Shown here piece by piece: positions 297 through 61,167 of a stretch of 64,000 nt of DNA. This stretch comes from Neolewinella aurantiaca. Its GTDB lineage: Bacteria; Bacteroidota; Bacteroidia; Chitinophagales; Saprospiraceae. Each line of letters starts with the position of its first letter. The stretch's first letter is position 1. The position numbers were made by a program, and so were the translations under genes. The notes below the pieces were generated by a model, which was given only the letters and a program-made list of their open reading frames with translations, was not told the DNA's origin and searched no databases. Where the stretch lies: the NCBI RefSeq assembly GCF_008014675.1, contig NZ_VOXD01000009.1:62001-126000 (forward strand), given 5' to 3'.

Positions 297-2333
297 TCAG
301 GCCCGCCAGAAGCGAAGCAAAAGAACCTCCACGAGGAAGAAAGCCAGTGCGCCCCAGATGAAGTACCGCCAAAGCGGGGTTCCTTCGTTTCGTTCCCGGA
401 TGTCGCCGATCAGACTGGCTTGGTTGTCGGCATCGAGAAGCGCAACGTTGGGGATGCTGGCCAGTTCGGCCAGTTCATTCGCATCGAGGTAAGAAAGATC
501 GGATTCTTTGCGGTCATAGTTGAAAGCAAAAGCATCCACTATTTCATCGCCCAGAACGAGGTCGTAAGTGCCCGCTTCGGGCACCTGGTTGTTGAGGCTA
601 AGCAGTACCCGGTTATCCACCACTCTTTGCTCGGGGATGAACTCTCCGTTCTTACCGCGCAATTTGAAAACGATGTCTGCACCTGCGCCCCGCCTGCTGG
701 TTTGGATTACCTCGTCCTGCCCGATGGTGTAAGCGGCCTGACGTCTGCGTCCGCTGCTGATGCCCATTTTGTAGAGCATGGGAATGAAGATTTCGGCGTT
801 GAGGGCGAGGTTGTTGATCTCGTTATCGAGCGGAGCACTGGAAAGGTAAACGTTTCCTTCGCCGAGCGTATACTTGGCCAGTGCCGTAGAGCCGTCGCGG
901 TAGGTCAGTAATGATTCCTGCTGACGGCTTCCTACGCGCCCGATGGGGAAATTGCCCGTCGTTGCGGGCAACCGCAGTGCACTTGAGCGGTTGCGGAACA
1001 CGTCACGGAAAATGAATTCCCGGCGGTTCAGTCCGCTCACTTCGCGGTTCTGCTCCACGAATGCATCCAGCCGGTCGGAGCCAACGCGGGTCAGGAAAGT
1101 ATTGTAACTGTTCACATCAGCGTTTGCGGGCGGGAAGATGAGGATGTTACCACCGTTTTCCACGTAGAGCCTCAGTTGCTCGGCCAGGCCGGAGCCGACC
1201 GAAACCTGATCGGTCAGTACAATCAGGTCGTTTTCTGCCAGCGATCCGTAATCGATGTTACGGCTACCGACGTAGTTGGCCGCGAAGACGGAGAGCCCGC
1301 CCAGCGCTGCGCGCAGGTTGCGCTGCGGTTGCCCGTCGTCGTCGATATTGAGCACTTTCACCTTGTCGGCGGTACGAAAAGTGAGGTGGTAGACGTCGTC
1401 GAACTGAACGGGGAAGTCGGTGATCCGAAGTTCTGCGCGTCCGATGCCAGGCTCGGAGATATTGAGGTAAACCGAATCGGTGACGTAGCTGCGGGCGGGG
1501 ATGCTCAGTGTTCCTTCCGGTTTGCTTTGCCCCAGGTAGTTCTGGCTGAGGCGCACATTGTCGAGGTCTTCGTTTCCGTAGTTACGGATGCGGACCAGCA
1601 GCAGGTTGTTTTGGTTCAGCTGCGGCACCGGAGCCTCGAACCATACCGAATCGATCCCGACGTTGCGTTCCCGGACGCTGGTGAGCGGCACAAGGTTTAC
1701 CTGCACGGAAGTCTCCAGTTTTTCTGCGGAGAGGTCCACCACATTACGCTGAAAATCGGAGACCAGGTAAGTGATTTTATTCTCAATGTTTTCGGTGCGA
1801 AGCGCCGAACGCTGGCGGCCGTTCACCACCGAAAGACGGCGACTGGCGGGGGCCACTTTTATGTCTTCGATGAGTTCCAGCGCTTCTTCCTGACCAACCA
1901 GGCGCTGGTTCCGGCCTCTGAAATCGTTATCGACCACCTGGAAGCGGTCTTCAACTCCGTAGGCATTCACGATATCCCGGGCACGATCCTTGGCAATCTG
2001 CAGCAGTGGAGCGCTGTCGGACTCGGCCCCCATGCTAAAGCTGTTATCTACGTAAAGGCTGACGGCCTTGCGGCCGGTAAGCACCTCGCGCGCGGAAGGG
2101 ATGAACGGCTGAGCGAAAGCAAACACCAGCGCGGCCAGCGCCAAACAGCGGGCGGCCAGCACGAGCAGGTTGCGCAGGCGACTGCGCATGCTTGTTTCTT
2201 CTTTCACTTCCTTCAGGAACTTTACGTTCGAAAAAGCCACTTTCTTAAAGCGGCGGAAGTAAAAGAGGTGAATGATGATCGGGATGGCAAGTGCGGCCAG
2301 GGCCCAGAGGAAAGAAGGATATAAAAATTGCAT
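297..2333 (-). CDS. BatA-type membrane protein with N-terminal aerotolerance-regulator domain
   Basis: This is a 678-residue protein. The start is the ATG at 2333, because the sequence from there (MQFLYPSFLWALAALAIPII) matches the first membrane helix and FRRFKKV loop of the BatA N-terminal family; the open frame upstream has no such character. A second helix lies near residues 58-76. A von Willebrand-like domain follows with a DNSFSMG motif (DxSxS, metal-site type) near residue 92. A long extracytoplasmic middle part has beta-rich, CARDB-like stretches. A last helix, near residues 655-673, ends in FWRA. Family members sit in the inner membrane and probably act as scaffolds; their biochemical role is poorly known. 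The region at 678-686 carries a copy of the GCAGGTGCA motif, coding for GAGAD. Confidence 0.85.
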   Translation of the reverse strand: MQFLYPSFLWALAALAIPIIIHLFYFRRFKKVAFSNVKFLKEVKEETSMRSRLRNLLVLAARCLALAALVFAFAQPFIPSAREVLTGRKAVSLYVDNSFSMGAESDSAPLLQIAKDRARDIVNAYGVEDRFQVVDNDFRGRNQRLVGQEEALELIEDIKVAPASRRLSVVNGRQRSALRTENIENKITYLVSDFQRNVVDLSAEKLETSVQVNLVPLTSVRERNVGIDSVWFEAPVPQLNQNNLLLVRIRNYGNEDLDNVRLSQNYLGQSKPEGTLSIPARSYVTDSVYLNISEPGIGRAELRITDFPVQFDDVYHLTFRTADKVKVLNIDDDGQPQRNLRAALGGLSVFAANYVGSRNIDYGSLAENDLIVLTDQVSVGSGLAEQLRLYVENGGNILIFPPANADVNSYNTFLTRVGSDRLDAFVEQNREVSGLNRREFIFRDVFRNRSSALRLPATTGNFPIGRVGSRQQESLLTYRDGSTALAKYTLGEGNVYLSSAPLDNEINNLALNAEIFIPMLYKMGISSGRRRQAAYTIGQDEVIQTSRRGAGADIVFKLRGKNGEFIPEQRVVDNRVLLSLNNQVPEAGTYDLVLGDEIVDAFAFNYDRKESDLSYLDANELAELASIPNVALLDADNQASLIGDIRERNEGTPLWRYFIWGALAFFLVEVLLLRFWRA

Positions 2334-2506
2334 AGTCAGGGAAGAAGACGAACTTGGGCGGGGGAATGTTTTACGGGGGGCAAGGTAAAGGTACTTTGGT
2401 ATGTTGGTTCGTTGGTCGTTTGAGCGTACCCCTATTGTAAAGAAGCAGCTAACAAGCGGGTTCAGGGAAGATTCTTCGGGTGTTTTTGGGTATGAAGGCT
2501 CCAGAG

Positions 2507-2527
2507 GGCGCGGACGCAGGTGCAAAG
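2507..2527 (+). repeat. Copy of dispersed GCAGGTGCA motif (intergenic)
   Basis: GGCGCGGACGCAGGTGCA followed by AAG. The flank GGAGGTTTTC is shared with the copy at 61147, so the similarity extends beyond the core. It lies in the 227-bp gap between two minus-strand genes. Confidence 0.8.
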
Positions 2528-2560
2528 GAGGTTTTCCCGAAGCAGGTCGAAGCCCGGGCA

Positions 2561-3574: not shown

Positions 3575-3807
3575 CGGTACGCGTAGAAATGCCCGAAAAA
3601 ACCTGACTCCTGATATTTCCTGTATATTAATTATCGGTGAATTCCTGCGGGCGAAATTTCGCAAAAATTCTGAATTTAACTATATTCACGCCACAAACCA
3701 CCACACTGTCCACCACATTCATAAAATTAATTCTGACTTCTGCAGCAGAAGCTTACAGTAAACCAACGACGCTTCTCTTCTTTGGAGAGGGCAAGGTCAT
3801 CAACTTT

Positions 3808-3828
3808 CTCTGCACCTGCTGCCGAGCC
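3808..3828 (-). repeat. Copy of dispersed GCAGGTGCA motif upstream of the subtilase
   Basis: CTCTGCACCTGCTGCCGAGCC on the plus strand, 36 bp before the subtilase start. The upstream flank TCAACTTTCT is shared with the copy at 57558, which shows a longer common ancestor than the 9-bp core. Confidence 0.75.
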
Positions 3829-6787: not shown

Positions 6788-6809
6788 AGGCGGGAACGCG
6801 GGTGCAGGG
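6788..6809 (+). repeat. Degenerate copy of dispersed GCAGGTGCA motif
   Basis: AGGCGGGAACGCGGGTGCAG: one mismatch in the 9-bp core and good agreement in the left context. It lies 10 bp after the acyltransferase stop. Confidence 0.5.
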
Positions 6810-6892
6810 TCCGAAACAGGCAAGCCTGGTTTAAGAGTATAAGCGAGAACAGAAACACTACTTTGTTTTTTCTCAAGCATAATTATAGTTGC

Positions 6893-8441: not shown

Positions 8442-9635
8442 ATGACCACAACCAAGCCCCACCGCCTCAGCCAGCAGCGTAGCTCAAACGTAACCGAAAT
8501 CCTAACCCAACTCGTTGCCTTCCCGGTTCTCGGCGGAGAAGGGAACCACGCCATCGCCAACTGGATCAAGGCCTATCTGGACGAATACGGCGTTGCCTAC
8601 CAAACCGTACCCGACGAAACCGGGACGAAGGAAGCTATCCACTGCCGCATCGGCCCTGCCGTTGACGGTGGAATCATTTTGAGCGGGCATATGGATGTGG
8701 TACCGGTGGTTGGTCAGCCGTGGGATACTGATCCGTTTGAGCTTACGTTGAAGGGAGATAAGCTCTATGGCCGTGGGAGCTGCGACATGAAAGGTTTCCT
8801 TGCTTGTTGCCTGGCAAGCGTTCCACTGCTCCTGCGTTCGCGCCTGAAAAAGCCCGTTTACTTTGCCTTCAGCTTCGATGAGGAAATCGGTTGCATGGCC
8901 GGTGACCTGACCGCGGAAGCCATCCGCGATTTCTACGACGAAAAGCCCGGAGGTGCCATCATCGGTGAGCCCACGATGCTGCAGCCGATGGTGGGCCAGA
9001 AAGGCATCATGGTGTACACCACCACCGTGCACGGTAGCCAGGGGCACAGCAGCCGGGTAAAGCAGGAAGTCGATGCGATCCACGAAGCTGCCCGCCTCAT
9101 CGTTTGGCTCGAAGACAAGATGGACGCCCTCATCGCCGCCGGACGGACGGACGACCGCTTCCACCCCAACCATACAAGCATCCACGTAGGCACGATCAAA
9201 GGCGGCTCCGCCTTCAACATCATCGCCAACGAATGCAGTTTCGACTGGGACTTCCGCAACATCCCCATGGACGATGCCCAGGCCATCATCGACGATTTCC
9301 AGGCTTATTGTGCCGAACGAATCGAGCTGCGCCGCAAAACCTTCCCCGGCTTCAACATCACCCACTCCGCGATGCACCCGCCCGTTCCGCCGCTCGACAC
9401 GGCGGAGGACGAGCCGATCGTAGACCTGATCAAGAAGATCTCCGGCCGGACAGATGTATCCACCGTCGCTTACGCCGCCGAGGCGGGGCAGTTCTCTAAC
9501 GCCGGCTTTCCGGCCGTCATCTGCGGCCCCGGCGACATCGCGCAGGCGCACCGGGCTAATGAATTTTGCGCGGTAGAGCAACTGGAAGGGTGCATGGAAA
9601 TGATTGAGCGACTGGCCACGTTCAGCAGCCTTTAA
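8442..9635 (+). CDS. argE: Acetylornithine deacetylase (M20/ArgE family)
   Basis: This is a 397-residue cytosolic di-zinc hydrolase. The start at 8442 is preferred over 8391 because the extra residues lie in an inverted repeat and the promoter ends just before 8442. M20 motifs are present: SGHMDVVPV (His83, Asp85), GRGSCDMKG (Asp115), FDEEIG (Glu147/148, general base and ligand), an IGEP segment, and a late AQAHRANE with the last metal His. The order and length (about 390) fit ArgE, which makes ornithine from N-acetylornithine in arginine synthesis. Other M20 amidases (for example N-acetylcitrulline or succinyl-amino acid deacylases) cannot be excluded; an acetylcitrulline variant of the pathway is known in some Bacteroidota. 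The stop codon lies inside a 25-bp palindrome. Confidence 0.8.
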   Translation: MTTTKPHRLSQQRSSNVTEILTQLVAFPVLGGEGNHAIANWIKAYLDEYGVAYQTVPDETGTKEAIHCRIGPAVDGGIILSGHMDVVPVVGQPWDTDPFELTLKGDKLYGRGSCDMKGFLACCLASVPLLLRSRLKKPVYFAFSFDEEIGCMAGDLTAEAIRDFYDEKPGGAIIGEPTMLQPMVGQKGIMVYTTTVHGSQGHSSRVKQEVDAIHEAARLIVWLEDKMDALIAAGRTDDRFHPNHTSIHVGTIKGGSAFNIIANECSFDWDFRNIPMDDAQAIIDDFQAYCAERIELRRKTFPGFNITHSAMHPPVPPLDTAEDEPIVDLIKKISGRTDVSTVAYAAEAGQFSNAGFPAVICGPGDIAQAHRANEFCAVEQLEGCMEMIERLATFSSL

Positions 9636-11652: not shown

Positions 11653-14600
11653 ATGAAACCAATCGCTATTTTAAGCCTCGCACTACTGCTATTCCAGTGT
11701 GCTGCGCCTCTCCCCGACCCCGTACTTACCTTAGAAAACAACGACCACATCGTCCTCGTTGGAGGAAACCTGTGCTCAAGAATGATGGACTACAACCATT
11801 TAGAGACAGAGGTACAACTAAGGTTCCCTGAGCACCAGCTCTTCATCCGCAATATGTGCGACGGCGGCAACACGCCGGGCTTTCAGCCCCATTCCGCGCG
11901 CACCGATCCCTGGGCTTTTCCGGGCGCGGAGAAATTCCATCAGCACGATGGCCTTGCACGTGATTCCCGCTCTGAAGGCTTCTTCCCGACACCCGACGAG
12001 TGGCTCACCACCCTGGAGGCCGATATCATCATCGGCTTTTTCGGATACAGCGAGTCCTTCAGCGGCCCCGCGGGCGTTGACAACTTCAAGGCAGAGCTAA
12101 AAATGTGGTTAGACTATACTTCGCTATCCGATTACAACGGCAACGATTCTCCTCAGATCGCACTGGTGTCGCCCGCCGCTTTTCAGGACCGGTCTGCGGT
12201 GATGGACCTCCCCGATGGCAGCCTCGAAAACGAAAACCTGCGGCTCTACGCCGAGGCCATACGCGAGGTCGCCACCGAAGCGGGCGTCCCCTTCATTGAC
12301 CTCTTTGCGCCCACCGAAGCCTGGTTTGCCGGCAATACCGACATGACCACCGACGGCGCACAACTCTCCGAAAAAGCTTACAAGAAACTGGCGCCCTGGC
12401 TGGCAGACCGCCTCTTTGGGGGCGAGGCTGCAGAAGAGGCGCGAACGCAGGTGCATAAACTGGTTGAAGACAAGAACTGGCTTTGGCACAACGATTTCAA
12501 AATCCCCAACGGCGTACACGTCTACGGCCGCCGACACAACCCGTTCGGGCCCGACAATTACCCGATGGAAATCAAAAAGATCAGAGAGATGACCATGATT
12601 CGGGACACCGCAATCTGGTCCGCCCTTCGTGGCCAGGAATATGACATCGCCGCTGCCGACGCTAAAACCTTTACCCTCCCTCCCGTCGAGTCCAATTACT
12701 CCCTGGTCAAGGAAGACGGAACCGTAGACTACCTCTACGGCGAAGACCTGATGTCTACCTTCACCTTAGCCGACGGCTTCAAACTCGAGCTCTTCGCCTC
12801 CGAGGAAGAGTTCCCCGACCTCGCCAACCCCTGCCAGATGAGTTTCGACAATAAGGGACGGCTGTGGGTTGCCGTGATGCCAACCTACCCCCACTACAAA
12901 CCGGGCGACTCACGCCCCAACGATAAACTCCTCATTCTGGAGGATACCGATAACGACGGCAAAGCCGACAAATCAACCGTCTTCGCAGATGGCCTCCACG
13001 TCCCCGTTGGCTTCGAATTGGCTCCCGAAGGCGTTTACGTTTCTCAGGGCACCAACCTCGTCTTGCTGAAAGACACCGACGGAGACGACCACTACGACGA
13101 AAAAGAGATCATCTTGTCGGGTTTCGATGACCACGACACCCACCACACCATCAGCGCTTTCACTTCCGATCCTTCCGGAGCGATCATTATGGGCGAAGGC
13201 CTTTTCCTCCACTCTAACGTGGAGACCGCCTACGGTACCGTCCGGGCCGCCAATGGCGGCTTCTACCGGTTCAGTCCGCAACGCCGTCACCTGGAGCGCA
13301 CCGCCCAAATCCCGATCCCCAACCCGTGGGGCATCGCCCACGACGACTTCGGCCAGCCTTTCTTTGCTCAGACCTCAGGCCCCGCCGTGCACTGGATGCT
13401 GCCCAGCACCGTCAAAAACCAGTATGGTACCCAGGCTCCGCTTGCTTCACAACTGATCGAAGAAGACCATAAAGTGCGGCCGACTTCCGGCCTCGAATTT
13501 GTTTCCAGTCGTCATTTCCCCGAAGAAATGCAGGGAGATATGCTCATAAACAATACCATCGGCTTTCTGGGGATGAAGCAGCACGAGATGATCGACAACG
13601 AAAGCGGGAACTTCAGCACGAGATGGCGGCAAGACCTGATCAGCGGAACCGACACCAACTTCCGGCCCGTGGATATGGAGTTTGCTCCGGACGGGAGCCT
13701 TTACTTCATCGACTGGCACAACGTTCTGGTTGGCCACATGCAGCATAATGCCCGTGATCCCCTGCGCGACCACGTCCACGGTAAGGTTTACCGCATCACC
13801 TACCTCGAGCGCCCGCTCGTGGAGCCCGCCGAGATCGACGGAGCTTCCATCTCAACCCTGCTCAGTAACCTCGAACTACCCGAATACCGGTCCCGCTACC
13901 GGACACACCGTGAACTCCGGGGCCGACCTTCCGACGAAGTAATCCCCGCTGTAAAAAGCTGGATTGCCGACCAGGAAAAAAGCGCGCCCAACTACGAGAA
14001 GCTCCTGATGGAAGCCCTCTGGGTTACCTGGGGCCAAAACGAAGTCGACCAGGATTTACTCGAAACCGCACTGCAGGCCAAAGACTACCGCGTGCGTGCG
14101 GCTGCGGTTCAGGTACTGCGTTACAGCAGGCACCAGGTGAGCAACCATACCGGCCTGCTGAACACCGCCGCCGGCGATGAGCACCCGCGTGTGCGGATCA
14201 TGGCCCAAACCGCCGCCACCTGGCTACCCGAAGATGCCGGCCGGATGATTCTCGCTACTGCAGCCCAACACCCGGAGGAAGACTGGATGAAAAAATTCAA
14301 CGAAGCAGCCCCCAAATTCCTGACCGGCGAAGGACTCGACCGCCCCAAAGACGCAGCAATAGTTGCGAAGCACCTCAAAGGGGCTGACCTGAAGCAGTTC
14401 TCGGCGGGCGGAGAGATTTACCACAAAGACGGATCATGTGTCACCTGCCACCAGGAAACCGGAAAAGGCCTTACCGCCTCCGGCTTCCCTCCGCTGAAGG
14501 GTTCCGAATGGGTAAAGGGCGATCCGGAAGTGCTCGCTAAAATACTGCTCAAAGGCCTCATCGGTCCGATCACCGTAAAGGGTAAAGACTACCCCGGCCA

Positions 14601-15426: not shown

Positions 15427-16383
15427 ATGAAATTTCTCCTTTCGCTAATCCCAACGCTTTTCTTACTCTGCTCCTGTAACCCATCCGCGGCACCTGCGGC
15501 CGCGCCCGAAGAAGAAGATAAGCCGTACATCGTATTCGTAACCGGAGACGACGAATACCGTTCTGAGGAATCCATGCCGATGCTCGCCCGGCTGGTGGAA
15601 CGAGAACTGGGGGCACGAACGAAAGTGCTTTACGCCCTCGACTCGGCCGGCTACATCAACCCCAACATAACCGACAATATTCCCGGCCTCGAAGCACTGG
15701 ACTCGGCCGACATGATGGTCTGTTTCCTGCGCTGGCGCAACCTGCCCGACGACCAGGCGAAGCACATTCTGGACTTTGCCGAAAGCGGCAAACCAATGGC
15801 CGGGTTCCGCACCAGTACCCATTCGTTTATGTACAAAAAAGACACGCTGCGCCAGCACCTCAACAACGAATGGCCCGCCGCCGTCTTTGGCCAGCAGTGG
15901 ATCACACATCACGGTCACTTCGCCGATGGCCACGATCCAATGACCGAAGTTGAGGTATTCCCGGAGGCAGAAAGCCCGATCCTCAACGGCGTCAACGGCT
16001 TCCCGGCCTACTCGTGGCTGTACCACGTCGACGGCGGTAAATGGACAATCAACCCCAACGCAAGCCCCTTACTGAAAGGCACTTCTCTGCGTAGCAAACA
16101 CCAGGAAGCAGGTCGCCTGGACCAGTTCCCCCTTTCCAACCCCGTTGCGTGGACCAATGACTACAAAGGTGCACCCGTTTTCTTCACCACGCTCGGCCAC
16201 CCCTACGACTGGAAGAACCCCAACATGAGAAAACTTGCGCTCAATGGCATCGCCTGGGCGCTGGGCAAAGCAGATAAAATCCCGGCTTCAGGTCTGAATC
16301 CGGAAATCAACGGCGTTTACCAACCAAATAATTCCGGTTTTGGGGAAAAATTCAAAACAGGACGAAAGCCGGAGGCGTTCTAA
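15427..16383 (+). CDS. ThuA-domain lipoprotein
   Basis: This is a 318-residue protein with lipobox LCSC (Cys17) and an Ala/Pro-rich linker (SAAPAAAPEEED). A GCACCTGCGGCCGCGCC variant of the dispersed motif encodes this linker. The body is a ThuA domain (class I glutamine-amidotransferase-like fold): IVFVTGDDEYRSEESMPML, a SADMMVCFLRWR strand, GKPMAGFRTSTHSF, then the GHPYDWKNPNMRKLALNGIAWAL ending that is typical of ThuA proteins in Bacteroidota and Planctomycetes. Such proteins commonly accompany PVC-type haem lipoproteins, as here (gene at 11653-14799), and are thought to act in oxidation of sugars such as trehalose derivatives; the reaction is not established. Confidence 0.88.
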   Translation: MKFLLSLIPTLFLLCSCNPSAAPAAAPEEEDKPYIVFVTGDDEYRSEESMPMLARLVERELGARTKVLYALDSAGYINPNITDNIPGLEALDSADMMVCFLRWRNLPDDQAKHILDFAESGKPMAGFRTSTHSFMYKKDTLRQHLNNEWPAAVFGQQWITHHGHFADGHDPMTEVEVFPEAESPILNGVNGFPAYSWLYHVDGGKWTINPNASPLLKGTSLRSKHQEAGRLDQFPLSNPVAWTNDYKGAPVFFTTLGHPYDWKNPNMRKLALNGIAWALGKADKIPASGLNPEINGVYQPNNSGFGEKFKTGRKPEAF

Positions 16384-27154: not shown

Positions 27155-29278
<2,124 letters not shown>

Positions 29279-43200: not shown

Positions 43201-46200
43201 TCGTTGTACAATTATCCGACTTCACCGCCTGGGGGCGGTAGTCCGGTAGGGTTACCTCGCAGTTTCCATCGGTCAGCAGCACTTCGTTCGCCGGGCAGGT
43301 GAGCATCGGGCTGATGGTATCCTGCAGGGTGACCATCACGCTACAATCGCTGGTGTTGCCGTTACCATCGTCGGCGGTTAGCGTAACCGTTATCTGCGTA
43401 TCGTCGCTGCTGTATACGGTAGTAGCCAGCGGAGCCTGGGTTATCGTGATTCTGCTTCCTCCGTTCACGTCGGCACAGTTGTCGGTCGCCGTGGTTACGG
43501 CAACGAGATCCGGTAAGGAGGCTTCACAGTTTGCATCTACATAAATGGTCGAGTCGGCCGGGCAGGTGATGACCGGTGGGATTACGTCGTCGAGTAGAAC
43601 GACAAAGTCACAGCTTGTGGTGTTTCCGTTGCCATCGTCGGCCGTCAGGGTTACCGTGAAGCTACCACCTTCGTTCTGTGCGGCAAAGACGGTTCCGGCT
43701 ACGGGGTCCTGGGTTACTGTAATGGCCGCCGGATCGGTACAATTGTCGTCGGTAACGGCCTCAGGGGTGTAGTCGGGCACGGTAAATTCACAATCGGCGG
43801 TCAGATTTTCCACCTTATCGGCCGGACAAACGATGCTCGGCGAAATCGTGTCTTGCAGCGTAAGGTTAAATATGCAGGTGGTTGTGTTGCCACTCAGGTC
43901 TTCCACCGTCAGGGTGATATCCTGGCTGAAAGCCTGGCCGCTGATCACGGTTCCCGCGGGCGGAGACTGCGTCACCTCCAGGTCTGCCGGATCGGTGCAG
44001 TTATCAGCGATAATTGCACGGCTGGTGTAATCTTCGAGGGCGAAGTCACAGCCGGCATCCGGGTTAGCTACTGTGTCAGCCGGGCAGGTAATCGTCGGGC
44101 TGATGGTATCGGTCAGCGTCAGCTCAAAGTCGCAGCTTACGGTGTTGCCGTTGCCGTCGTCGGCTGTCAGCGTGATGGTGAGCCCCCCGCCCCCCAGAGG
44201 GGGAGTAAGAACGGAGCCGGGCGGTGGCGTTTGGGTATACACGATCTGATTTCCTGTTGCCGACGTTGAGGTCGTTCCGGTGGGACGGCAATTATCCTGC
44301 GCGGTCGCAGGTCCAATGTCCCAGTAATCGGGCACGGTATAATCACAAGCTGCGGTAAGTACGCCGAGGGTATCGTTCTGGCAAACCGGAATGGTTGGTG
44401 GCGTGCGGTCAAAGAGGGTTACTTCAAAGGAACAGGACACCGAATTTCCGCTACCGTCGGTAGCGGTCAGGGTAATGGTTTCGGTGGCGAGGTGTCCGCT
44501 GATGGTGGTTCCCGGCAGCGGCATTTGGGTTATCGTGATGTTGCTTTGCTCACAAGCGCTACTCGCGGTCGCCTCTCCGGTATAATCAGGTATGCTTTGC
44601 TGGCAGTTACCGTCGGCGGTCAGTTCCTGATCGGCCGGGCAGGTGATCATCGGGTCGGTGCTGTCTTCCAGCGTAACCATCATTGTGCAACTGTCCTGAT
44701 TGCCGGATTCATCGGTAGCGATGAGCGTGACTTCCAGGGTCAGCCCATCCCCGCTGAGCGGGGTTCCGGCAAGGGGCCGCTGGGTCATAACGACGATATC
44801 TCCGGGTTCCGAGCAATTATCTGCCAGACCTGCATTGGGGCGGTAATCGGGTAGTAATATCTGGCAGTTGCCGTCTACGCTGATTACGTCATCAGCCGGA
44901 CAGGTAATCATCGGCGGGATGGTATCGATCAGCTGAACGTCGAAGTCACAGTTGGCAGCATTGCCGCTGGCGTCGGTTGCAGTGAGGGTGATGGTAATCA
45001 GGCTTGCCTCATCGCTCACCATCGTTCCGGGAGCCGGGCTTTGGGTCACAGTTACGGCCCCGGAGCCTTCGCAGTTATCGGCTACTTCCGGTAAGGAGGT
45101 GTAGTCCGGGATAAGGGCGGCGCAGGCAGCATCGACCACCAATGTTGTATCAGCAGGGCATGCAATTGTTGGCGCCGTAACGTCCTCCAGTTCAACGGTA
45201 ATCATGCACTGGGTCGAGTTTCCGGAAGGGTCCGTGGCGATGATGGTGACGACCTGTTCTGCGCCAAGACCGGAGATCGTTGCTCCCGGAACCGGGCTTT
45301 GCACCAGCGTCAGCGCCCCTGCCTGAACGCTCAGCGGACCACAGTTATCAGTCACGGTAATACTATCGCGGTAATCGGCAATAGTGACCATACAGGCCGG
45401 GTCGGCGGCGATCACACTTAACGGCGGACAAGTCAACGCCGGCGGCGTATTGTCGCTCACGGTAACCATAAACGTACAGTCAGTGGTGTTGCCGTTTCCG
45501 TCGTCGGCCGTCAGAGTGACGGTTTCGGTGCTCAGTCCGTTTAGGGGACTGCCTGGCGCATTACTTTGCGAGAGCGCAGGTGCAGGGGAACAGTTATCGG
45601 CAGTGGACGCAAGCCCCGTGTAATCCGGGAGGGTGGTTGTACAGTTCCCGTCTACAAATATTTCCTGTGCCGGGGGACAGGTGATCGTGGGCGCGGTATT
45701 GTCCTGCAGCACGAGTAAGAACGAGCAGTCGGTCGTATTCCCGTTTCCGTCATCAGCCGTCAGGGTGATCGTCGTGGAAGTATTGTCTCCACTTAAGGTT
45801 GTTCCCGCAGCAAGAACCTGAGTAACCACAATAGCTTCCGGCACAGTACAGTTGTCGCTTACCGTTGCCGAACGGTAATCCGGCACCATTGCATTACAGG
45901 CATCATCAACAAATATTTCCTGGTTTGCCGGGCAGGTAATGGTCGGGGCTGTGTTGTCCTCCAGTATGATCGTTGTCAGGCACTGAGCGGTATTCCCGTT
46001 GCGGTCATCAGCCGTCAGGGTAACGACGATCTCCGTCCCGTCGCCGGTGAAGGTTTGTCCTATCCCGATGTTCTGGGTCACGATAATCATGTCGGTAGTA
46101 GTGCAATTGTCAGCGACCGCGGCCTGCGCTGCCAGGTCCTCTAAGTCGTAGCTACAGTCTGCGTCCAGGTCGATGGTTTTATCGGCGGGGCAACTGATCG

Positions 46201-49200: not shown

Positions 49201-52200
49201 GCGTCACCGCAATGGCTGCCCCCATGCTACAATTGTCCGTTTGGGTAGACAGCGAACTGAAATCCTCGAGGCCGTAAGAGCAGGATGCGTTCAGGTCGCG
49301 TGCCTGATCTGCCGGGCAGGTAATTACGGGATCGGTATCGTCCTCCAGCGTCAGGGTAAAATCGCAACTGGCGCTGTTGCCCGCAGCATCCGTGGCAGAA
49401 ATTGTAATGGTGGTAACCGTTCCGTCTCCCGTCACTACGGTTCCGGCGGCGGGGCTTTGCGTTACGGTAAGATTAGGCGCGGGCGCAGGTGCAAGGGAAG
49501 AACAGTTGTCTTCGATGACCGCCATGCCTGTGTAATCTGGAATTGTAAAGCTACAAGCTCCGTCTACTGCTTCGGTCTGGTCAGCAGGGCAGGTCAGGGT
49601 TGGTGGCGTTACGTCCTCGGTTTGGTAATCGAACATACAGCTGATCGAATTGCCATTCACATCCGAGGCTGTGATGGTAATCTGAATCACCTGTTCTCCG
49701 CTCACTACAGTATTGGGAGCCGGGCTCTGTACCAGCGTAAAGCCATCCATTGTGCAGGTAGAGCTCACCATCGTTGCCCCCCGGAAATCAGGAATCAGAG
49801 CCTGGCAATTAGCGTCTAACTGATCCAGTTGCGGGCTCACCGGACAGGTAATCATCGGCGGCTGGTTATCCATCAGTTCTACCTGAAACGAACAGTTGGC
49901 CGTGTTTCCCGAAGCGTCGGTGGCCGTAAGCGTTACCGTTACGGGGCTATCGTTGATGTCGTACATCGTGCCCGCGGCGGGGGATTGAACAACAGCAACC
50001 GGCCCCTTGCGGGGGTCACAATTGTCGGATACACTAGCCTGACTTGCGTAGTCAGGCAGCGGCACCTCACAGGTGCCGTCCACGGCGATGGTCTGAGGGG
50101 CGGGGCAGGATATGACGGGAGGGGTCTGATCCACGACGGTAACGTCAATGGTACAACTCGTCTGCAGTCCGGCATTATCCGTCGCCGTGATCGTTACCGT
50201 CAGGTCGTTGGAGATATTGGTTCCCGGCCCGGGCGTCTGGACGACGGAGACGCCGCCACAGGCGTCAGATGCCACCCCGTTCATATAATTAGGCAAGATG
50301 GCCAGGCAGTTGTTCGCGTCTACGACCAGAGTTTGGGGCCCGACGCAGTTGAGAACTGGTGGTGTTACGTCTTCTTTGATGAAGGTAACGCTACACTGAC
50401 TGCTGTTACCAGCTGCATCAGTAGCCGTTACGGTTACATTTTGGGTTGCTGCGGTAAAGGTCGTTCCGGCGGCGGGCGATTGCGTAATGGTGATGCCCGC
50501 AGCACCGCAGTTGTCCGTAGCGGAAGCGAGGCCCGTTACATCGGTGACCGTTCCTGCACAGCTGATGGCATCGGCATCTACCGTGATGGGAGCCGGACAG
50601 GTGATCATTGGCTGCGTCCGATCTACCGTTATCAGGTCGAAAGTACAATTACTGCTATTGCCGTCTTGGTCGGTAGCAGTCAGAGTAATTTGAGTTGTGG
50701 TGGCGGAGGTGATCATGCTGCCTGCGGCGGGGCTTTGCGTCACCGTAATCTGGTTGCCGGGGGAGCAGTTATCCTGCACACCGGCCTGGCCGGTAAAGTC
50801 AGGCACTACCACTGAGCAGTCGTTGGAAGATACATTGCGGGTCTGGGTACCGGGGCAATTGATGGTTGGTGGGGTTTCGTCGTCTAGCGTGAGGGTGTAG
50901 GTACAGTTGCTCACGTTACCGGCTTCGTCGGTAGCGGTGATGGTGACCAACACGTTCGTCCCGTCATTGCTTCTAACCTGACCCTGCACCGGCGTTTGCG
51001 CCAAAGTAATGCCCGCGCCCATCGAGCAATTATCCGTTACGGTAGCGTCTCCCGTCAGGTCCGGAATCTGGTACTGACAGTTTTGATCCACCGTTACATC
51101 GGTGTCTGCCGGGCAGGTAAGTGTTGGCGCAATACGATCTTCGCCCGTTACCGTAAACGTACAGCTGCTGGCGTTGCCGCTCTGGTCCGTAGCCGTAATA
51201 GTGACGGTGTTCGCGCCAATGTTGAGGGTACTTCCCGCCACCGGAGACTGGGTAATGACGATGTCGTTGGTCGCCGTACAGTTATCACTGCTCTGTGCAT
51301 TGGCAGTATAGTCTGCCAGGGTAATTTCACAGTCCGCATCAACGGCTACAACAGCATCTCCCGGGCACTGCACCGCTGGCGGCACATCATCCAGGGTAGT
51401 CACCATTACGTCGCCAACACAGATACCGTCATCGTAGCGGATCGTTTCCGTTACGGGAGCACCCGTAAAGTTATTTCCCAAAGTAACCACACCATTCTGA
51501 TCGACCGTAGTTCCGATGGCACTGCCACCAACAACGCTCCAAACGCCGTTGGGCACATCAGCCGTGATGGCCTGCAGTACGTCTCCCGGGCAGCCGGTGT
51601 CTTCAAACTGGGTCAGGTTCGGTTCATCAATGAAGCCGTCTCCGTCGTTGTCAATTCCATCGTTACAGATTTCGCCACAGCGGGCATTGCCCAGGAAGTT
51701 GACGTTGTTCGAGTAGTCACATTCCGGCGTTCCGGTCAGCGGGAAATCGCTGTCCTGAAAAGGGAGGTCAGCTGCAGCAAAGCCCGGGTCATTTACGCTC
51801 AGGTAAATGAAAGCACCCGCGGGAACCGCACTAATGGGAATAGTGACCTGTACCGTCGTCTGATCGCCTGCTTCTACCTGCACGGGCAGCGAGGTCGTCT
51901 GGATCAGGGTCGCCATTGTAACCCGTGGATCATCGATATAGTAAGAGATAGGCGTCGAAGCCGGCAATGGTGCCGAACCTGCGTTCTCAATCACAAGAGT
52001 CGCCAGAATTTCGTCGGGGCATCCGGAAAAGTCGATGACGGGTAAGCCGTCACCACCAATTTCCACCATGATGATGGCATCCGGTGCAGGGTATGTGATG
52101 ACCGCCTCGGGCCCTCCTCCCACAGAGGTTTGTACCAAAAAGTTATTGTATCGCTGCCCGAGCGCCGGGTTCAGGTTATTCTGCTGAAACTGAGGCACCG

Positions 52201-55058: not shown

Positions 55059-56024
55059 TTACTTCTTATTGAGCCGGAGCCAAAAATCTTCCGCCATCGC
55101 TTCCGGATCAATATCTTCGTACATCCATACGGATCGCGGGGTGTTTTCGGGTGGCGTGGGCACGCTGATTTCGGAAGCTTGCTCAGGCTTCAGGAAGGCT
55201 TGCAGCAGGGCTACGTCCCACATCGTCCATTTAGTGGCGTCAGGACCGGCGCTGGTTTCCCAGCGCTTGCGCAGGTAAGCGCCGATTTCACCTGCTTTGC
55301 CGAGTTGCCCGAAGGTTTCGTTTCTGTCCCAGGTGTACTCGATGGCCACCGAGATGGGCATTACGTGCAGCTCGAGCCCTTCGGCGTTGAGGAGGTAATT
55401 GGCAGCGTTGAGATCCCGGCGGATGTTGAACTCGTCTTTATTCCAGAACCCGCCGTCGAAGTCGTAGCGAAAGCCGAGGGTGTAGGCAACGATCCGGTCT
55501 TTGATCTCTGGTTGCAGAGCGATGGCGGAGGCCAGGTTGGTTGCCGCGCCGATACACATCACCACGAGTTTTTCGTCATCGTTCAGCGCCATGGTTTCAT
55601 CGATGATAAACTGGGCTGCGGGGCTGTCGCGCGGGTCATAATCGCCCCACGGTTTCCCCATGATGAGGTCGGCCCCGAGGGGATGGGGCAGATCGGAGCG
55701 CCCGGCGAGGTCGAGTAGTTCTTCGTTCAGTTGCTGGCTTTGGTAGACCGTACTGTCTCCGCTCCAGACGTGAAACCACTGAGCGGAACTGATGCCCAGT
55801 AGTTCAAAGCCGGGGTAATCCTCCGTTACCAGGTACGCGATGGCAAACAGGTCGTCGATTTCATTGGCAGTATCGGAATCGAGAATCATTTTTACGGGAG
55901 CCTCGCGTGGCCATTCGTGGCGCGGAGCTTCGGGGAGGTCTGCTTTTTCAGCGTCTGATGTTGCGGGCGACGGAGCGCAGGTGCAGAGAATGGTTAGGAG
56001 GAGCAGAAGGATGACGGTTCGCAT
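55059..56024 (-). CDS. Nucleoside hydrolase (IUNH family), lipoprotein
   Basis: This is a 321-residue protein; the start at 56024 gives a lipoprotein signal (LLLLLTILCTC). A copy of the dispersed motif (55977-55985) encodes the CTCAPS part. The Asp-rich calcium motif near the N-terminus of the mature protein is KMILDSDTANEIDDLFA (family: DxDxxxDDxxA, with two changes). IGAATNLASAIALQPEIKDRI and a NIRRDLNAANYLLN segment (family: EFN..xDPEAA) follow. It hydrolyses nucleosides to base and ribose, here outside the cytosol, as a scavenging enzyme; specificity is open. A TATATTTG box ends 4 nt before the ATG, suggesting leaderless transcription. Confidence 0.88.
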   Translation of the reverse strand: MRTVILLLLLTILCTCAPSPATSDAEKADLPEAPRHEWPREAPVKMILDSDTANEIDDLFAIAYLVTEDYPGFELLGISSAQWFHVWSGDSTVYQSQQLNEELLDLAGRSDLPHPLGADLIMGKPWGDYDPRDSPAAQFIIDETMALNDDEKLVVMCIGAATNLASAIALQPEIKDRIVAYTLGFRYDFDGGFWNKDEFNIRRDLNAANYLLNAEGLELHVMPISVAIEYTWDRNETFGQLGKAGEIGAYLRKRWETSAGPDATKWTMWDVALLQAFLKPEQASEISVPTPPENTPRSVWMYEDIDPEAMAEDFWLRLNKK

Positions 56025-57353: not shown

Positions 57354-57557
57354 AGAAGGTAGCATCCTTTAGGCGGTGTTTGAGTCCCACTCTGGGGTTC
57401 ACCTCTGCCCTTCTGTCTCACCGTAATGAGAGGATATGCCAAGAGGTATAAAAGCAAAATAGCATCACGACAGCCAGTATTTGGTTTGCCAGAAAAAGCC
57501 ACCAAATCGCAGGCCCGCCTGCTCATACCTTTGTATCGGAATGGTTCCCTCAACTTT

Positions 57558-57578
57558 CTTTGCACCTGCGGCCGCGCC
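57558..57578 (-). repeat. Copy of dispersed GCAGGTGCA motif (intergenic)
   Basis: CTTTGCACCTGCGGCCGCGCC on the plus strand with TCAACTTT upstream, shared with the copy at 3808. It sits in the 247-bp gap 57354-57600, which also has a TACCTTTG box (57525 area) with no gene after it. Confidence 0.8.
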
Positions 57579-57600: not shown

Positions 57601-60600
57601 CTAACCTTCCTCCCCCTTCAGACTCGTCAGGAACGCCACAAGGTTGCGAATTTCCCGACGGGAAATCTTCCCGTCCACAGAAGGCATGCTTGACGGCAGG
57701 GTTTCCTCTTCCGCAATATCAGCCCGGGGAATCTTCTTTGTCTCCGTCTTTCCTGTCTTCACCTCCAGGTATTCGGGAGTACGACTCACCACTATGCCCG
57801 AAAGCATTTCTTCGTTATTGAGGGTCACCAACACGGTCTCGTGGCCAGGCGCAAGTGCTTCGCTTGGGCGGATGATTGAGGTCAGCAGTTCCCGGGGTGA
57901 GAGGCGGTGCCCGACCCCGGCCAGGTTCGGCCCAACGTTGCCACCGTACTCAAAGATGGCGTGACAGCGGGTACACTGAGCGGTAGTATTCCGGTAGAAC
58001 ACCCGGTAACCAGCCCGCTTGTTTCCGCCAGCCAGTGCGGTGGCCATCAGCCCCAGATCATCTGTTTTCATGAGCTCTTCCTCGTAGGCAGACAGTTGTT
58101 TCTGGAGTTCTGTGTTGCCATCATGAGCTTCAACAGCCTCCACCAGGTCGAGGTGAATAACGGCCGGGAGTTTGCCCGCTGCCATCTGGCCGATCAACTC
58201 GCCAAGGAGCGCTTCCCCTTCGGCGCCCGGGAGTTTCGCCAATCCAGCAAGTGCTGACTGGGCCTCGCCAACGGTCCCTTCCACAATGATGTCGCGGTAA
58301 AGCTTAGTGGCAGAAGCAGGCTCGATAGTAGATGCAGGCAACAGTTCCAGCGCGCGTCGACGTACCTGATCGTTGCGATCATTGAGGGCCGTACGTAGTA
58401 ATTGCTCCAGGTTGGGCGCGTGAAGTTTGTCGAGTGCAACCAGAGACTCCGCCCGGATATCAGGATTGCCGTCCTGGGTCATCATGGTGGCAAGCTGGTC
58501 CGTAGTTCCTTTGAGCTCTAGCGAAGAAGACGCCCTGATCGCAGCTTTACGGACACCAGCCTCGCCTTTCGCGATCAGTTCAGGAATGATGCTTCCGAGC
58601 TTTTCCGTTACGTAAACAGCGCTCTTTTTCCGTACTCCCCGGTAGCGACCGTCTACGCGGTCAAATACCGACGGGTCGGCCCAAGTGCCGAGTGCAGCCA
58701 GGGCCTCGGCCCGCATTGGGGCCGGATTAGATGTGTTATCGACGTACTTCACCAACTCGTCAATTGCGCGATCATTACCGACGTTGACTGCGGCATTGAT
58801 GGCGCGCCGGATGAGTGGTTCGCTCGTCCACGCGCGGGCATTGAGTGTACTCGCCAGGGGCCACATTGCTCCGGGGATGGTGAAGTCATCGTTGATGGCA
58901 CGCGCGGCTTCAGCCACAACGTATTCGTCCTCATCCTGAAGGAAAGCTTTCACTTCCGGAGATTCCATACGGCGGAGTGCTACCACCGCCAGCAGGCGAA
59001 CGTTGCGGGAAGGATCGGCCGCCAGGTTGCGCATGGCAACGGCATCGCCGATGCGGCCGAGGGCAACCATGCCGCCGTGGCGAAGCCACGGGTCCTGGCC
59101 ATCGTCTTCGCGCAGCATAGCTACAATTGGCTCTACCGCAGCAGTCTCTTCGGTTCGGCCAAGGGCCTCCATGGCGAAGAAGCGAACGCGCGCAGAAGGA
59201 TGACCAAGCAGGCCGATGAGCGCTTCTGCATGGCCACTCTGTTTGAGGTCTCCGATCATTTTAGCGGCCTGGGCGATGATTTCCGCGTCGGCATCGAGAA
59301 GGAGTTCAGCGAAAGCGCCCTCTCCTTCTTCGTAGCCCCGGCGATTCATCATGCTCATGCCCCAAATGGCGTGGATGCGGGCTAGCTGCTCTTTTGATCC
59401 GGCAGAAACTTCGCGGAAGGCCTCAAATCCGTTTTCGGCTCGTTTTGCCAGTTCGAACTGAGCTTTGAAACGGATACGTTGGTCTTGATGGCCGAGGAGT
59501 TCGGCGAGAGATGGTTCGTCATTCCGTGAGAAATCGCTTGTCAGCAGTTCGCCGACTTCTTTTCTCAACTCCGTTTCTGCACCTGCGTCCGCGCCTACAT
59601 CCAATTTCCAGATGCGGCCCTCGTTTTTCGTCCCCCAGCCGTTGATCCAGTCGCCGAAATAGAGGGAGCCTTCGGGACCAAAGTCGAGACCGGTTGGTAA
59701 CAGGCCTTTCACGATCGTGTCGTGATCAGCAAGGGCAAAGCCCGCGCCGTCGGGCTTCATGCTGAAGGAATGGATGGGTGAATTATTCGGTGAACCCCGG
59801 AATTCGGCGACGAAGAAGCGGTCGTAGTAGTCAGGAGACAAGGCGGTTCCCGGGTTGTACACCAGCCCGGTGGGGCCGTTTACGAAATTCTGGATAGCGG
59901 GCAAGAAGTAGGCGGCTTGTTCGTCGTTGCGGGCCAGGCTCATCTTTTCGTCCATCCATACTTTGTAGTCATTGTTTTTGTCGTCGGTGTACTTGCCGAA
60001 CTGCCAGTTTATCCGCCAGCCGGTATCTGAACCATCGATGAGGTAAACCAGGCGTTCACGCTCTCCGGCGTGGTCGCCATCATTGTCGACAGTAATGAGG
60101 TTACCGAACTGATCGAAAGCAAATTCATGGGTATTGCGCACGCCGTGCGCAAATACTTCGTAATTGGAACCATCGGGGTCACACCGGACAACAACGCCCC
60201 GGTTGGGGTACTTCCAGTTCTTGCCGTCTTTATCGGTTACGTTGGAGCCGATGTCTCCGATTCCCCACCAAATGCGGCCCTGGGGCCCTACCGTAACGCC
60301 ACTCATACCGTGGCCGCTAAAGCCAATATGGACTGCAAAGCCATGCGCAAGAGCTTCCGTACCATCGGCGATGCCATCGTTGTTTTCGTCGGATGCTTTC
60401 CACAGATCAGGGCCTACGGCTACATAAACATTGCCGTCGTGGTACTCGATACCGTTGGCCACATCAGTAATCTCTTCACCGAAGTCTTCCAGATAGCGCT
60501 GTGTGTAGTCGGCCACGCCGTCCCCGGTTTTGTCCGTTACGTACCATACGTTTTCCTTTTCGACCGTGAGGTCCCGCCAGTCGCGAACGCCATCGTTGTT

Positions 60601-61026
60601 CAGGTCTTTCAGGTGAGCCATTGACTGATCGTTGTCGGCCTCAAAGGTTTTGCGGAGAAATTCCCGCCGGTCTTCTACTGTCTCGAACGACATGGAAGCC
60701 ACCGTCCAGTCCATGTGGCCCCTGATGTCGAACTCGGAACTCGTTTGGCGGGAAGCACGGGTGTAGAAAATCCTTCCGTCCGGAGCTACACTGATGGCGA
60801 TCGGATCCTGTACGATAGAATCGGCCGCCCAGAGATCAAGCTTCAGATCGTCCAGAATTTCAACGTTCATCTCCTTGCGGATTTTAGCGGCTTCGCTTGC
60901 CGCCGTTTCCGGGTCTAGTGAGATGGACTTCGCTTCGTATTTATTATTGACCTCCGGAGCACAGGCATAAACGATTCCGGCAATAGCCAGAAGGGCAAGA
61001 AGAATTCTTACTGGGAACTTTCGCAT
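57601..61026 (-). CDS. PVC-type haem-binding lipoprotein (propeller, HEAT repeats, cytochrome c)
   Basis: This is an 1141-residue protein. Lipobox VYAC (Cys22). Residues 50-480 form a beta-propeller of glucose/sorbosone-dehydrogenase type with calcium-like DxNxD loops (LNNDGVRDWRDL, DKTGDGVADYTQ, DENNDGIADGTE) and GPEGSLYFGDWINGWG near the end. Residues 500-960 are HEAT-type helical repeats (IRFKAQFELAKRA, ARVRFFAMEALGR, VRLLAVVALRRM). A c-type cytochrome domain carries CTRCH near 1016 and GPNLAGVG plus SIIRPSEALAPGHE, the TIGR02603-like signature. It is likely an exported electron-transfer or sugar-oxidising protein of unknown substrate. A full GGCGCGGACGCAGGTGCA copy (core 59578) encodes GADAGA in the linker between propeller and HEAT part. 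Confidence 0.92.
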   Translation of the reverse strand: MRKFPVRILLALLAIAGIVYACAPEVNNKYEAKSISLDPETAASEAAKIRKEMNVEILDDLKLDLWAADSIVQDPIAISVAPDGRIFYTRASRQTSSEFDIRGHMDWTVASMSFETVEDRREFLRKTFEADNDQSMAHLKDLNNDGVRDWRDLTVEKENVWYVTDKTGDGVADYTQRYLEDFGEEITDVANGIEYHDGNVYVAVGPDLWKASDENNDGIADGTEALAHGFAVHIGFSGHGMSGVTVGPQGRIWWGIGDIGSNVTDKDGKNWKYPNRGVVVRCDPDGSNYEVFAHGVRNTHEFAFDQFGNLITVDNDGDHAGERERLVYLIDGSDTGWRINWQFGKYTDDKNNDYKVWMDEKMSLARNDEQAAYFLPAIQNFVNGPTGLVYNPGTALSPDYYDRFFVAEFRGSPNNSPIHSFSMKPDGAGFALADHDTIVKGLLPTGLDFGPEGSLYFGDWINGWGTKNEGRIWKLDVGADAGAETELRKEVGELLTSDFSRNDEPSLAELLGHQDQRIRFKAQFELAKRAENGFEAFREVSAGSKEQLARIHAIWGMSMMNRRGYEEGEGAFAELLLDADAEIIAQAAKMIGDLKQSGHAEALIGLLGHPSARVRFFAMEALGRTEETAAVEPIVAMLREDDGQDPWLRHGGMVALGRIGDAVAMRNLAADPSRNVRLLAVVALRRMESPEVKAFLQDEDEYVVAEAARAINDDFTIPGAMWPLASTLNARAWTSEPLIRRAINAAVNVGNDRAIDELVKYVDNTSNPAPMRAEALAALGTWADPSVFDRVDGRYRGVRKKSAVYVTEKLGSIIPELIAKGEAGVRKAAIRASSSLELKGTTDQLATMMTQDGNPDIRAESLVALDKLHAPNLEQLLRTALNDRNDQVRRRALELLPASTIEPASATKLYRDIIVEGTVGEAQSALAGLAKLPGAEGEALLGELIGQMAAGKLPAVIHLDLVEAVEAHDGNTELQKQLSAYEEELMKTDDLGLMATALAGGNKRAGYRVFYRNTTAQCTRCHAIFEYGGNVGPNLAGVGHRLSPRELLTSIIRPSEALAPGHETVLVTLNNEEMLSGIVVSRTPEYLEVKTGKTETKKIPRADIAEEETLPSSMPSVDGKISRREIRNLVAFLTSLKGEEG

Positions 61027-61146
61027 TATAATTTCGACTTTATTTGAGTTGGCGAAAGATACTGTTCACCTACCTAAAAATCTCCCTTGAATATCGGACA
61101 ATTACGATCCGACACCAGAAATGGATTCAGGCTTACAGGTTCTGAG

Positions 61147-61167
61147 GGCGCACACGCAGGTGCAGAG
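61147..61167 (+). repeat. Copy of dispersed GCAGGTGCA motif (intergenic)
   Basis: GGCGCACACGCAGGTGCAGA with TTCTGAG before and GAAGGTTTTC after, a longer match to the copy at 2507. It lies in the gap between two minus-strand genes. Confidence 0.8.

What the first reader, a model, noticed from the sequence alone, without database searches (positions are those of the whole stretch)
678..61167. Dispersed 9-bp core sequence GCAGGTGCA in an extended GGCGCGGACGCAGGTGCA context, on both strands and in genes
I count 18 exact copies (678, 2516, 3811, 12447, 17125, 19956, 20118, 20280, 27206, 29084, 29682, 34080, 45576, 49485, 55977, 57561, 59578, 61156), against about 0.5 expected for a 9-mer on two strands of 64 kb. 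Several near copies add to this (6798, 15488, 21298, 34131). The similarity extends to about 20-30 bp. In-gene copies lie in signal peptides (17125, 27206, 55977), linkers (59578, 12447) and repeat junctions, and use at least four reading frames (GADAGA, ARTQVH, CTC, APA). So protein function does not explain them. A short core with conserved flanks scattered in genes and gaps is like the uptake sequences of Pasteurellaceae and Neisseriaceae, or a Chi-like or micro-mobile repeat. I know of none described for Saprospirales.
Basis: partly seen in the sequence, partly recalled or inferred. Interest (0 to 1): 0.85.

Follow-up and report, generated by a model that had tools for sequence, protein, structure and literature searches.

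The report
Uptake-like DNA words in Lewinella genomes
The chromosome of this relative of Lewinella is sprinkled with over a thousand copies of a short DNA word that comes in different versions in related species and looks like the 'self' tags by which some bacteria choose which free DNA to take up, although the pilus machinery used for that elsewhere was not found here.

Summary
All 18 GCAGGTGCA sites are present, and the genome holds 1232 copies against 25 of the reversed control word. The unit is about 27 bp in three blocks, GGCGCG-nnC-GCAGGTGCA-RnGnnnGnTT. It lies on both strands about equally, in genes and gaps, more evenly spaced than chance. It is confined to one GTDB genus that includes Lewinella/Neolewinella, where species carry it in dialects: GGCG[C/G]GGnCGC[A/G]GGTGC, a longer-spaced GCGnCGGAGCGC[A/G]GG, CGCGGGAGC, and in one outlier CAAAGTAGCAAYG. 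Dialects cluster on a ComEC tree. Chi, promoter, terminator and mobile-repeat readings fit less well. The best explanation is a DNA uptake sequence, in a third lineage after Pasteurellaceae and Neisseriaceae. ComEC and DprA are there, but no secretin and no credible PilB/PilT-type ATPase was found, so the receptor should be new. A Saprospiraceae protein joining a ComEA-like domain to a large predicted outer-membrane barrel is a candidate conduit. Uptake itself is inferred, not shown. Tailed-phage contigs also carry the word, which keeps a 'self-mark' rival alive.

The parts
668..695 (-). uptake-like site, core at 678, in ORF 297-2561(-)
   Evidence: exact core; location
2507..2534 (+). uptake-like site, core at 2516; GGCGCGGACGCAGGTGCAAAGGAGGTT
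   Evidence: highest matrix score 45.7
3801..3828 (-). uptake-like site, core at 3811, intergenic
12438..12465 (+). uptake-like site, core at 12447, in ORF 11653-14799
17116..17143 (+). uptake-like site, core at 17125, near the N-terminus of ORF 17080-18336
19947..19974 (+). uptake-like site in 162-bp tandem protein repeat, copy 1
20109..20136 (+). uptake-like site in 162-bp tandem protein repeat, copy 2
20271..20298 (+). uptake-like site in 162-bp tandem protein repeat, copy 3
27196..27223 (-). uptake-like site, core at 27206, near the N-terminus of ORF 27155-29278
29075..29102 (+). uptake-like site, core at 29084, same ORF as 27206
29672..29699 (-). uptake-like site, core at 29682, intergenic
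34070..34097 (-). uptake-like site, core at 34080, in a 97-aa ORF
45567..45594 (+). uptake-like site, core at 45576, in 4489-aa ORF
49476..49503 (+). uptake-like site, core at 49485, in 4489-aa ORF
55968..55995 (+). uptake-like site, core at 55977; longer-spaced variant GCGACGGAGCGCAGG, the main dialect of G001 and G007
   Evidence: listed there as G000:C94:117967-117981
57551..57578 (-). uptake-like site, core at 57561, intergenic
59568..59595 (-). uptake-like site, core at 59578, in 1141-aa ORF; the G005 orthologue also has the word there, with one base changed to the G005 consensus
61147..61174 (+). uptake-like site, core at 61156
6789..6816 (+). near copy (score 16.8)
8817..8844 (-). near copy (score 26.8)
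15479..15506 (-). near copy (score 29.2)
21286..21313 (-). near copy (score 22.1)
34123..34150 (+). near copy (score 23.6)
45290..45317 (-). near copy (score 20.2)
50975..51002 (-). near copy (score 25.1)

Best explanation
These sites are a DNA uptake sequence of Lewinella/Neolewinella. A surface receptor binds the ~27-bp double-stranded word, so related DNA that carries it is preferentially taken up and recombined. Because an incoming allele with a better site is favoured each time, sites accumulate wherever the sequence tolerates them: gaps, gene starts, linkers. The receptor's specificity drifts and each lineage's sites follow, which gives dialects. The DNA would cross the outer membrane without a type IV pilus, possibly through the conserved helix-hairpin-helix/beta-barrel protein, then be handled by the ComEA-like HHH protein, ComEC, DprA and RecA. 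Shown here: the motif, its abundance, strand balance, even spacing, genus confinement, dialects, the ComEC, DprA and HHH genes, and no detectable secretin or credible PilB/PilT ATPase. Inferred: competence, sequence-specific uptake, the receptor and the conduit.
For: Abundance: 1232 core copies against 25 control. The 17-mer GGCGNGGNCGCRGGTGC has 781 copies in G000, 1229 in G005 and 982 in G006, with at most 5 control matches in any of 21 genus genomes, and 0-3 copies in each of 283 genomes of the order outside the genus, 7 of 283 having any. Strands are 40+/37- in 300 kb of C1, 6/8 to 8/4 per 50-kb bin; orientation to genes 38 same, 41 opposite; 79 of 120 sites are in ORFs of >=100 aa that cover 88.5%. 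Density per kb is 0.74 in gaps, 0.50 in the first 150 bp of ORFs (some of this may be mis-called starts), 0.16 inside. Gaps between sites have CV 0.69 (P=0.00045 by simulation); 50-kb bins hold 12,13,12,14,14,12 (P=0.003). Dialects: a family-like word (in G011 another dispersed word) tops an unseeded spaced-word scan in 15 of 16 genus genomes sampled, no family-like word in 3 others; 509 and 390 copies of the longer-spaced word in G001 and G007, 399 of CAAAGTAGCAAYG in G011. Dialect labels need 7 changes on the ComEC tree, the minimum, against a shuffled mean of 11.5. Window 59578 has the word at the same place in G005 at 70% DNA identity. ComEC in 21 of 21, DprA in 20 of 21, multi-HHH protein in 20 of 21; the DprA and HHH miss is the 55%-complete G010. 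Precedent in the phylum: Riemerella anatipestifer is competent with an apparatus unlike the known ones (PMC8459023, abstract and sections 19-20), and R. columbina prefers its own DNA (PMC7965970, section 16).
Against: No transformation of any Lewinella is known to me; the one search for it found nothing. ComEC and DprA are widespread (control genomes ring in 10 and 11 of 14) and do not prove competence. The known uptake sequences depend on type IV pili (recalled), and none were detected. The Riemerella surface protein family DUF5689 was not found in 20 of 21 genus genomes, so that apparatus is not simply shared. Tailed-phage contigs carry the word, which uptake explains only indirectly. One dialect group of four genomes is not clustered on the tree by itself (3 changes, 113 of 500 shuffles as low).
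Confidence: 0.7

Rival explanations
1. The word is an intracellular self mark: a nuclease/helicase complex (Chi-like) or a defence system spares or processes DNA that carries it, and phages copy it to pass as self.
For: Phage contigs carry the host word: 27 of 59 matched stretches are linked into one related group; in two of these stretches, 6 of 10 ORFs scanned match phage families, among them terminase, head protease, tape measure and endolysin. One 38.7-kb contig has 5 matches to GGCG....CGC[AG]GGTGC in the 22.2 kb held, against 106 in 464 kb of the host sample, both about one per 4.4 kb. The 18-mer is intact in L264 at 72% overall identity.
Against: Chi sites known to me (recalled) are 5-8 bases and strand-biased along replication. 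Here the motif is ~27 bp with ~28 bits, and strands show no consistent bias. Turnover of dialects is not expected for a core repair enzyme (recalled). The phage contigs were picked for having the word, so their density is biased upward.
Confidence: 0.14
2. The word is the binding site of an abundant nucleoid-organising, segregation or transcription protein.
For: Even spacing, the long information-rich site and enrichment in gaps.
Against: No orientation or promoter/terminator preference: divergent gaps 11 sites (expected 9.8), codirectional 20 (18.8), convergent 4 (6.5), orientation in codirectional gaps 10/10. Known nucleoid-binding systems have tens, not >1000, long sites (recalled). Phage contigs carry it too.
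Confidence: 0.08
3. A short mobile repeat (REP-like or other micro-element) spreads by insertion.
For: Many copies; occasional close inverted pairs. In four of the eight site-less orthologue rows there is a gap in the protein alignment at or beside the site.
Against: Sites lie in genes in five frames, flanks beyond about 20 bp share little, the other four site-less orthologue rows align as protein without a gap (two of them, C1:145777 with G013 and C2:57904 with G012, show small gaps in the DNA alignment), and genome-wide replacement of one dialect by another needs substitution.
Confidence: 0.04
4. Codon or composition artefact, or one repeated protein family.
For: The core can encode GADAGA or ARTQVQ; three window sites are in a tandem repeat.
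Against: Reversed control 25 vs 1232; Markov 6 vs 120; intergenic sites share the same consensus.
Confidence: 0.01

Closest known systems
DNA uptake sequence (DUS) of Neisseriaceae
   Same: Short over-represented word with species dialects that follow phylogeny and share a core (PMC3630211, 12 passages seen).
   Different: Unrelated sequence (DUS12 ATGCCGTCTGAA is recalled), longer site, other phylum, and no secretin or credible pilus ATPase, so no ComP-type minor pilin receptor is expected.
Uptake signal sequence (USS) of Pasteurellaceae
   Same: 9-bp core with conserved flanking blocks spaced roughly a helical turn apart (architecture of USS recalled); divergent dialects in Pasteurellaceae (abstract of PMC12616744).
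   Different: Flanks here are GGCGCG upstream and purine/GTT-rich downstream, not AT tracts (recalled); no T4P found; different phylum.
Natural transformation of Riemerella (Bacteroidota)
   Same: Same phylum; ComEC, DprA and an HHH protein needed there and present here; machinery otherwise unlike the known ones; self-preference in R. columbina.
   Different: Only A/T-rich k-mers were listed as candidate words there, and the DUF5689 surface protein was not found in 20 of 21 genomes here.
Chi sites (recalled)
   Same: Over-represented, dispersed oligomer.
   Different: Here long, without strand bias, and dialect-variable.
HIP1 of cyanobacteria (recalled)
   Same: Very frequent dispersed word in one lineage, of unproven function.
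   Different: HIP1 is a short palindrome; this is long and not palindromic.

Membership tests
DNA uptake sequence (DUS/USS class) | Strong over-representation of a specific word across the genome | tested here: met
   1232 vs 25 control
DNA uptake sequence (DUS/USS class) | Both strands, dispersed through genes and intergenic DNA | tested here: met
   629/603; 79 of 120 in ORFs
DNA uptake sequence (DUS/USS class) | Restricted to a lineage, with dialects that follow phylogeny | tested here: met
   clustering on a one-gene (ComEC) tree, with one of the groups not clustered by itself
DNA uptake sequence (DUS/USS class) | DNA translocation genes (ComEC, DprA, ComEA-type HHH) | tested here: met
   21, 20 and 20 of 21 genomes; none of these is specific to competent bacteria
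DNA uptake sequence (DUS/USS class) | Type IV pilus secretin and ATPase for uptake (both known classes) | tested here: not met
   Secretin 0 of 21. PF00437: 11 genus genomes reach the 24.9-bit cut-off only marginally (24.9-25.5 bits), over profile positions ~139-222 of 370 in ORFs of 943-1074 aa, against E<1e-120 in G035, G053, G058
DNA uptake sequence (DUS/USS class) | The word increases uptake and transformation | not testable with these tools
   needs experiments
DNA uptake sequence (DUS/USS class) | A cognate receptor protein | not tested
   no receptor identified; the HHH-barrel protein is a candidate conduit only
Riemerella-type apparatus | DUF5689 surface protein (RA0C_RS04920 class) | tested here: not met
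   no match at E<=0.001 in 20 of 21; present in G011. A diverged form below the cut-off is not excluded
Chi site | Strand bias along replication | tested here: not met
   6/8 to 8/4 in 50-kb bins of 300 kb, 629/603 genome-wide; the replication origin was not located
REP / mobile repeat | Intergenic, palindromic unit with insertion alleles | tested here: not met
   79 of 120 in ORFs; consensus not palindromic; insertion alleles inconclusive on few orthologues

The most novel reading that the evidence does not exclude
A third, independent origin of sequence-specific DNA uptake, in Bacteroidota, that works without type IV pili: a new receptor reads a 27-bp three-block word, an HHH-tethered ~24-stranded outer-membrane barrel carries the DNA, receptor and word co-drift into several dialects within one genus, and tailed phages carry the host's word.
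Probability: 0.5. Interest if true: 0.95.

Novelty: new variant of a known kind. Interest (0 to 1): 0.88.

Why it matters
Genome-wide uptake words are known to me only from two proteobacterial families (recalled), where they are tied to type IV pili. A third lineage in a distant phylum, with dialects and no detectable pilus machinery, would show that self-selective DNA uptake evolved more than once and by other means. It would give a ready assay and a concrete gene list for how Bacteroidota import DNA, which is open even in Riemerella. Phages that carry the word would open a new question on how viruses exploit or survive it.

Tried and rejected
Chi/KOPS, promoter, terminator, REP/mobile repeat and composition artefact: see rivals. 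A shared Riemerella DUF5689 receptor: no match in 20 of 21. De novo EM motif search worked in G000, G002, G005, G011, G012, G014 and G001 but fell on codon-like periodicity in the other genus genomes; it was replaced by an unseeded spaced 12-mer scan. In that scan the family-like word reaches only 5-6 places in G013, G015, G019 and G020, about as many as unrelated words reach in the outside genomes G021 and G034 (5 places), so there the likeness to the family and the whole-genome counts carry the claim; in G016 other repeats filled the list. The consensus lines are seeded with patterns that I chose, so their seed positions are fixed by construction. Dialect labels for the tree were assigned by me; G003, G006, G008, G010 and G018 were not in the scan and were placed by their counts and, for G006, its sites listed. 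One search merged convergent with codirectional gaps through a script error; one search is the corrected count and uses ORFs of >=80 aa, those of >=100 aa. One search used a loose regular expression for 'SITE' and counted G008 and G003 rows twice (20 rows, 17 distinct pairs), so its site tally is not used. Output was cut in the middle. For the barrel, Foldseek TM-scores are low (0.21-0.39 by query length in the 50 rows shown) and VIA-align lists usher, AlgE, porin, VDAC and TonB-receptor barrels within a few Z units, so no closest family is claimed. The ORF maps are longest-ORF heuristics, not gene calls. The literature searches are exact-phrase searches of an open-licence library; the last one, for phages and uptake sequences together, found nothing.
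Full report
What was checked. The weaker copies are also real: a matrix trained on 16 of these sites finds seven further copies scoring 16.8-29.2, against a best of 14.4 in one shuffled sequence. In 464 kb of this genome the word occurs 120 times, against 6.0 expected from an order-3 Markov model, and is the top 9-mer. In the whole 6.0-Mb assembly it occurs 629 times forward and 603 times reverse; the reversed control word occurs 15 and 10 times.

Anatomy. Aligning the 120 sampled sites gives three blocks: GGCGCG at -9 to -4, C at -1 with the core at 0 to 8, and a weaker R-n-G-nnn-G-n-T-T at 9 to 18, where G at +15 has 0.78 bit. The strongest flanking positions (-8, core centre, +15) lie about 11-12 bases apart, as expected if one face of the helix is read (inference). 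In C1 (300 kb) strands are 40+/37-, and 6/8 to 8/4 per 50-kb bin. In genes, 38 sites run with the gene and 41 against it; 79 of 120 lie in ORFs (>=100 aa) that cover 88.5% of the DNA. Five of six strand/frame classes hold 11-22 sites and the sixth, which would encode Arg-Arg-Cys, holds one. Site density is 0.74 per kb in gaps, 0.50 in the first 150 bp of ORFs and 0.16 in the rest, with no clear preference for convergent or divergent gaps or for orientation (ORFs >=80 aa). Sites in C1 are more regular than random: gap CV 0.69, P=0.00045; 50-kb bins 12,13,12,14,14,12, P=0.003.

Who has it. The nearest named genomes to the window's, by ComEC, are Lewinella sp. ANT-68, an uncultured Lewinella and Neolewinella lacunae. 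Matching contig lengths identify G008, G003 and G006 with these, and G007, G014, G019 with N. xylanilytica, Lewinella sp. 4G2 and N. antarctica (with 55); these are inferences from equal lengths. The 17-mer GGCGNGGNCGCRGGTGC is found in 21 of 21 genus genomes, from 2 to 1229 copies, controls 0-5. In a draw of 298 genomes of the order it is abundant only in the genus: 15 genus genomes hold 2-1229 copies; of the other 283, 7 hold 1-3 and 276 none. The bare 9-mer occurs 16-177 times in each of 59 genomes outside the genus, so the longer word is the better marker.

Dialects. Genus genomes poor in GCAGGTGCA have their own words. An unseeded scan for spaced 12-mers in samples of 60-464 kb puts a family-like word (or, in G011, a different dispersed word) on top in 15 of 16 genus genomes sampled, and no family-like word in three genomes of other genera. 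The signal is weak (5-6 places) in G013, G015, G019 and G020, about as many places as unrelated words reach in two of the outside genomes; their whole-genome 17-mer counts are 236, 197, 623 and 308. G016 was missed by the scan but has 241 17-mers. G001 and G007 use GCGNCGGAGCGCRGG, with longer spacing between the blocks: 509 and 390 copies, 1-88 in 18 other genus genomes, none in G011, and none in 38 of 39 genomes outside; the other, G022, has 4. G004 uses GGCGGGGnCGCGGGAGC, G014 GGCGCTGnCGCAGG. G011 uses CAAAGTAGCAAYG, 399 copies, at most 3 in each of 79 other genomes; its ComEC branch is long, so it may be a distant member. Grouping genomes into eight dialects (labels assigned by me, five genomes mainly from counts) needs 7 changes on the ComEC tree, the minimum, against 11.5 for shuffled labels; the four-genome GGCGGGG group by itself is not clustered (3 changes, 113 of 500 shuffles as low). 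The window's own site at 55977 has the longer spacing of G001/G007.

Orthologous sites. Few orthologous stretches were in hand. At window 59578 the G005 orthologue, 70% identical as DNA, has the word at the same place without a gap, with C where the G005 consensus has C (own sites have A or C there). C2:24620 is shared with G008 and C2:37677 with G008 and G003. Of eight rows without the site, four align as protein without a gap and four with one; two of the ungapped ones show small gaps in the DNA alignment. This suggests gain and loss by substitution in some cases but does not settle it.

Phages. GGCGCGGNCGCAGGTGCA occurs in 59 stretches of the IMG/VR collection. Twenty-seven are linked by blastn into one related group; in two of them, 6 of 10 ORFs scanned match phage families, among them terminase, head protease, tape measure, helicase and endolysin. 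One 38.7-kb contig has 5 matches to GGCG....CGC[AG]GGTGC in the 22.2 kb held, the same density as the host sample with that pattern (106 in 464 kb). The contigs were picked for having the word, so this density is biased upward. In L264 the 18-mer is intact at 72% overall identity. The host is inferred from the word only. Phages may gain from a self mark, or prophage DNA may share in uptake; this is a main reason that the confidence is not higher.

Literature. Searches that paired uptake sequences with Bacteroidetes, Bacteroidota, Saprospira or with dialect/new-lineage terms found no such report, the one with Flavobacterium found the R. columbina paper, and Lewinella with natural competence found nothing. 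Only exact phrases in the open-licence library were searched. In R. columbina self-preference was measured and the k-mers listed are A/T-rich (PMC7965970 section 16).

Verdict. A real, lineage-specific, dialect-forming word system that meets the sequence-level features of a DNA uptake sequence that I could test and lacks the pilus parts of the known ones. Function remains to be shown.

Noticed in passing
L267, L268, L253, L264 and 23 further viral loci: A group of tailed-phage contigs carries the host word, in gaps and in genes, intact in a relative at 72% identity.
   Followed up: partly
window 10520-11440: Ten copies of a ~94-bp tandem unit holding the inverted repeats CAGGCTTTAGCCTG and TTCAGCCTGAAGGCTGAA.
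   Followed up: no
window 19947-20298: Three uptake-like sites at 162-bp intervals in a tandem repeat of an 1859-aa ORF on the opposite strand: copies by repeat expansion, not independent gains.
   Followed up: partly
L238:551-2695 (own genome C94:24051-26195): Helix-hairpin-helix motif joined to a predicted ~24-stranded outer-membrane barrel, with relatives in Saprospiraceae.
   Followed up: yes
G011 (loci L065-L070, L089-L093, L227): The only one of 21 genus genomes with DUF5689 is also the only one with the unrelated word CAAAGTAGCAAYG.
   Followed up: partly
G002 C19:96266-96323 and C26:256307-256357; G000 C1:172593-172662: Close inverted pairs of the word that could form hairpins, like the inverted DUS pairs of Neisseria (recalled).
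   Followed up: no
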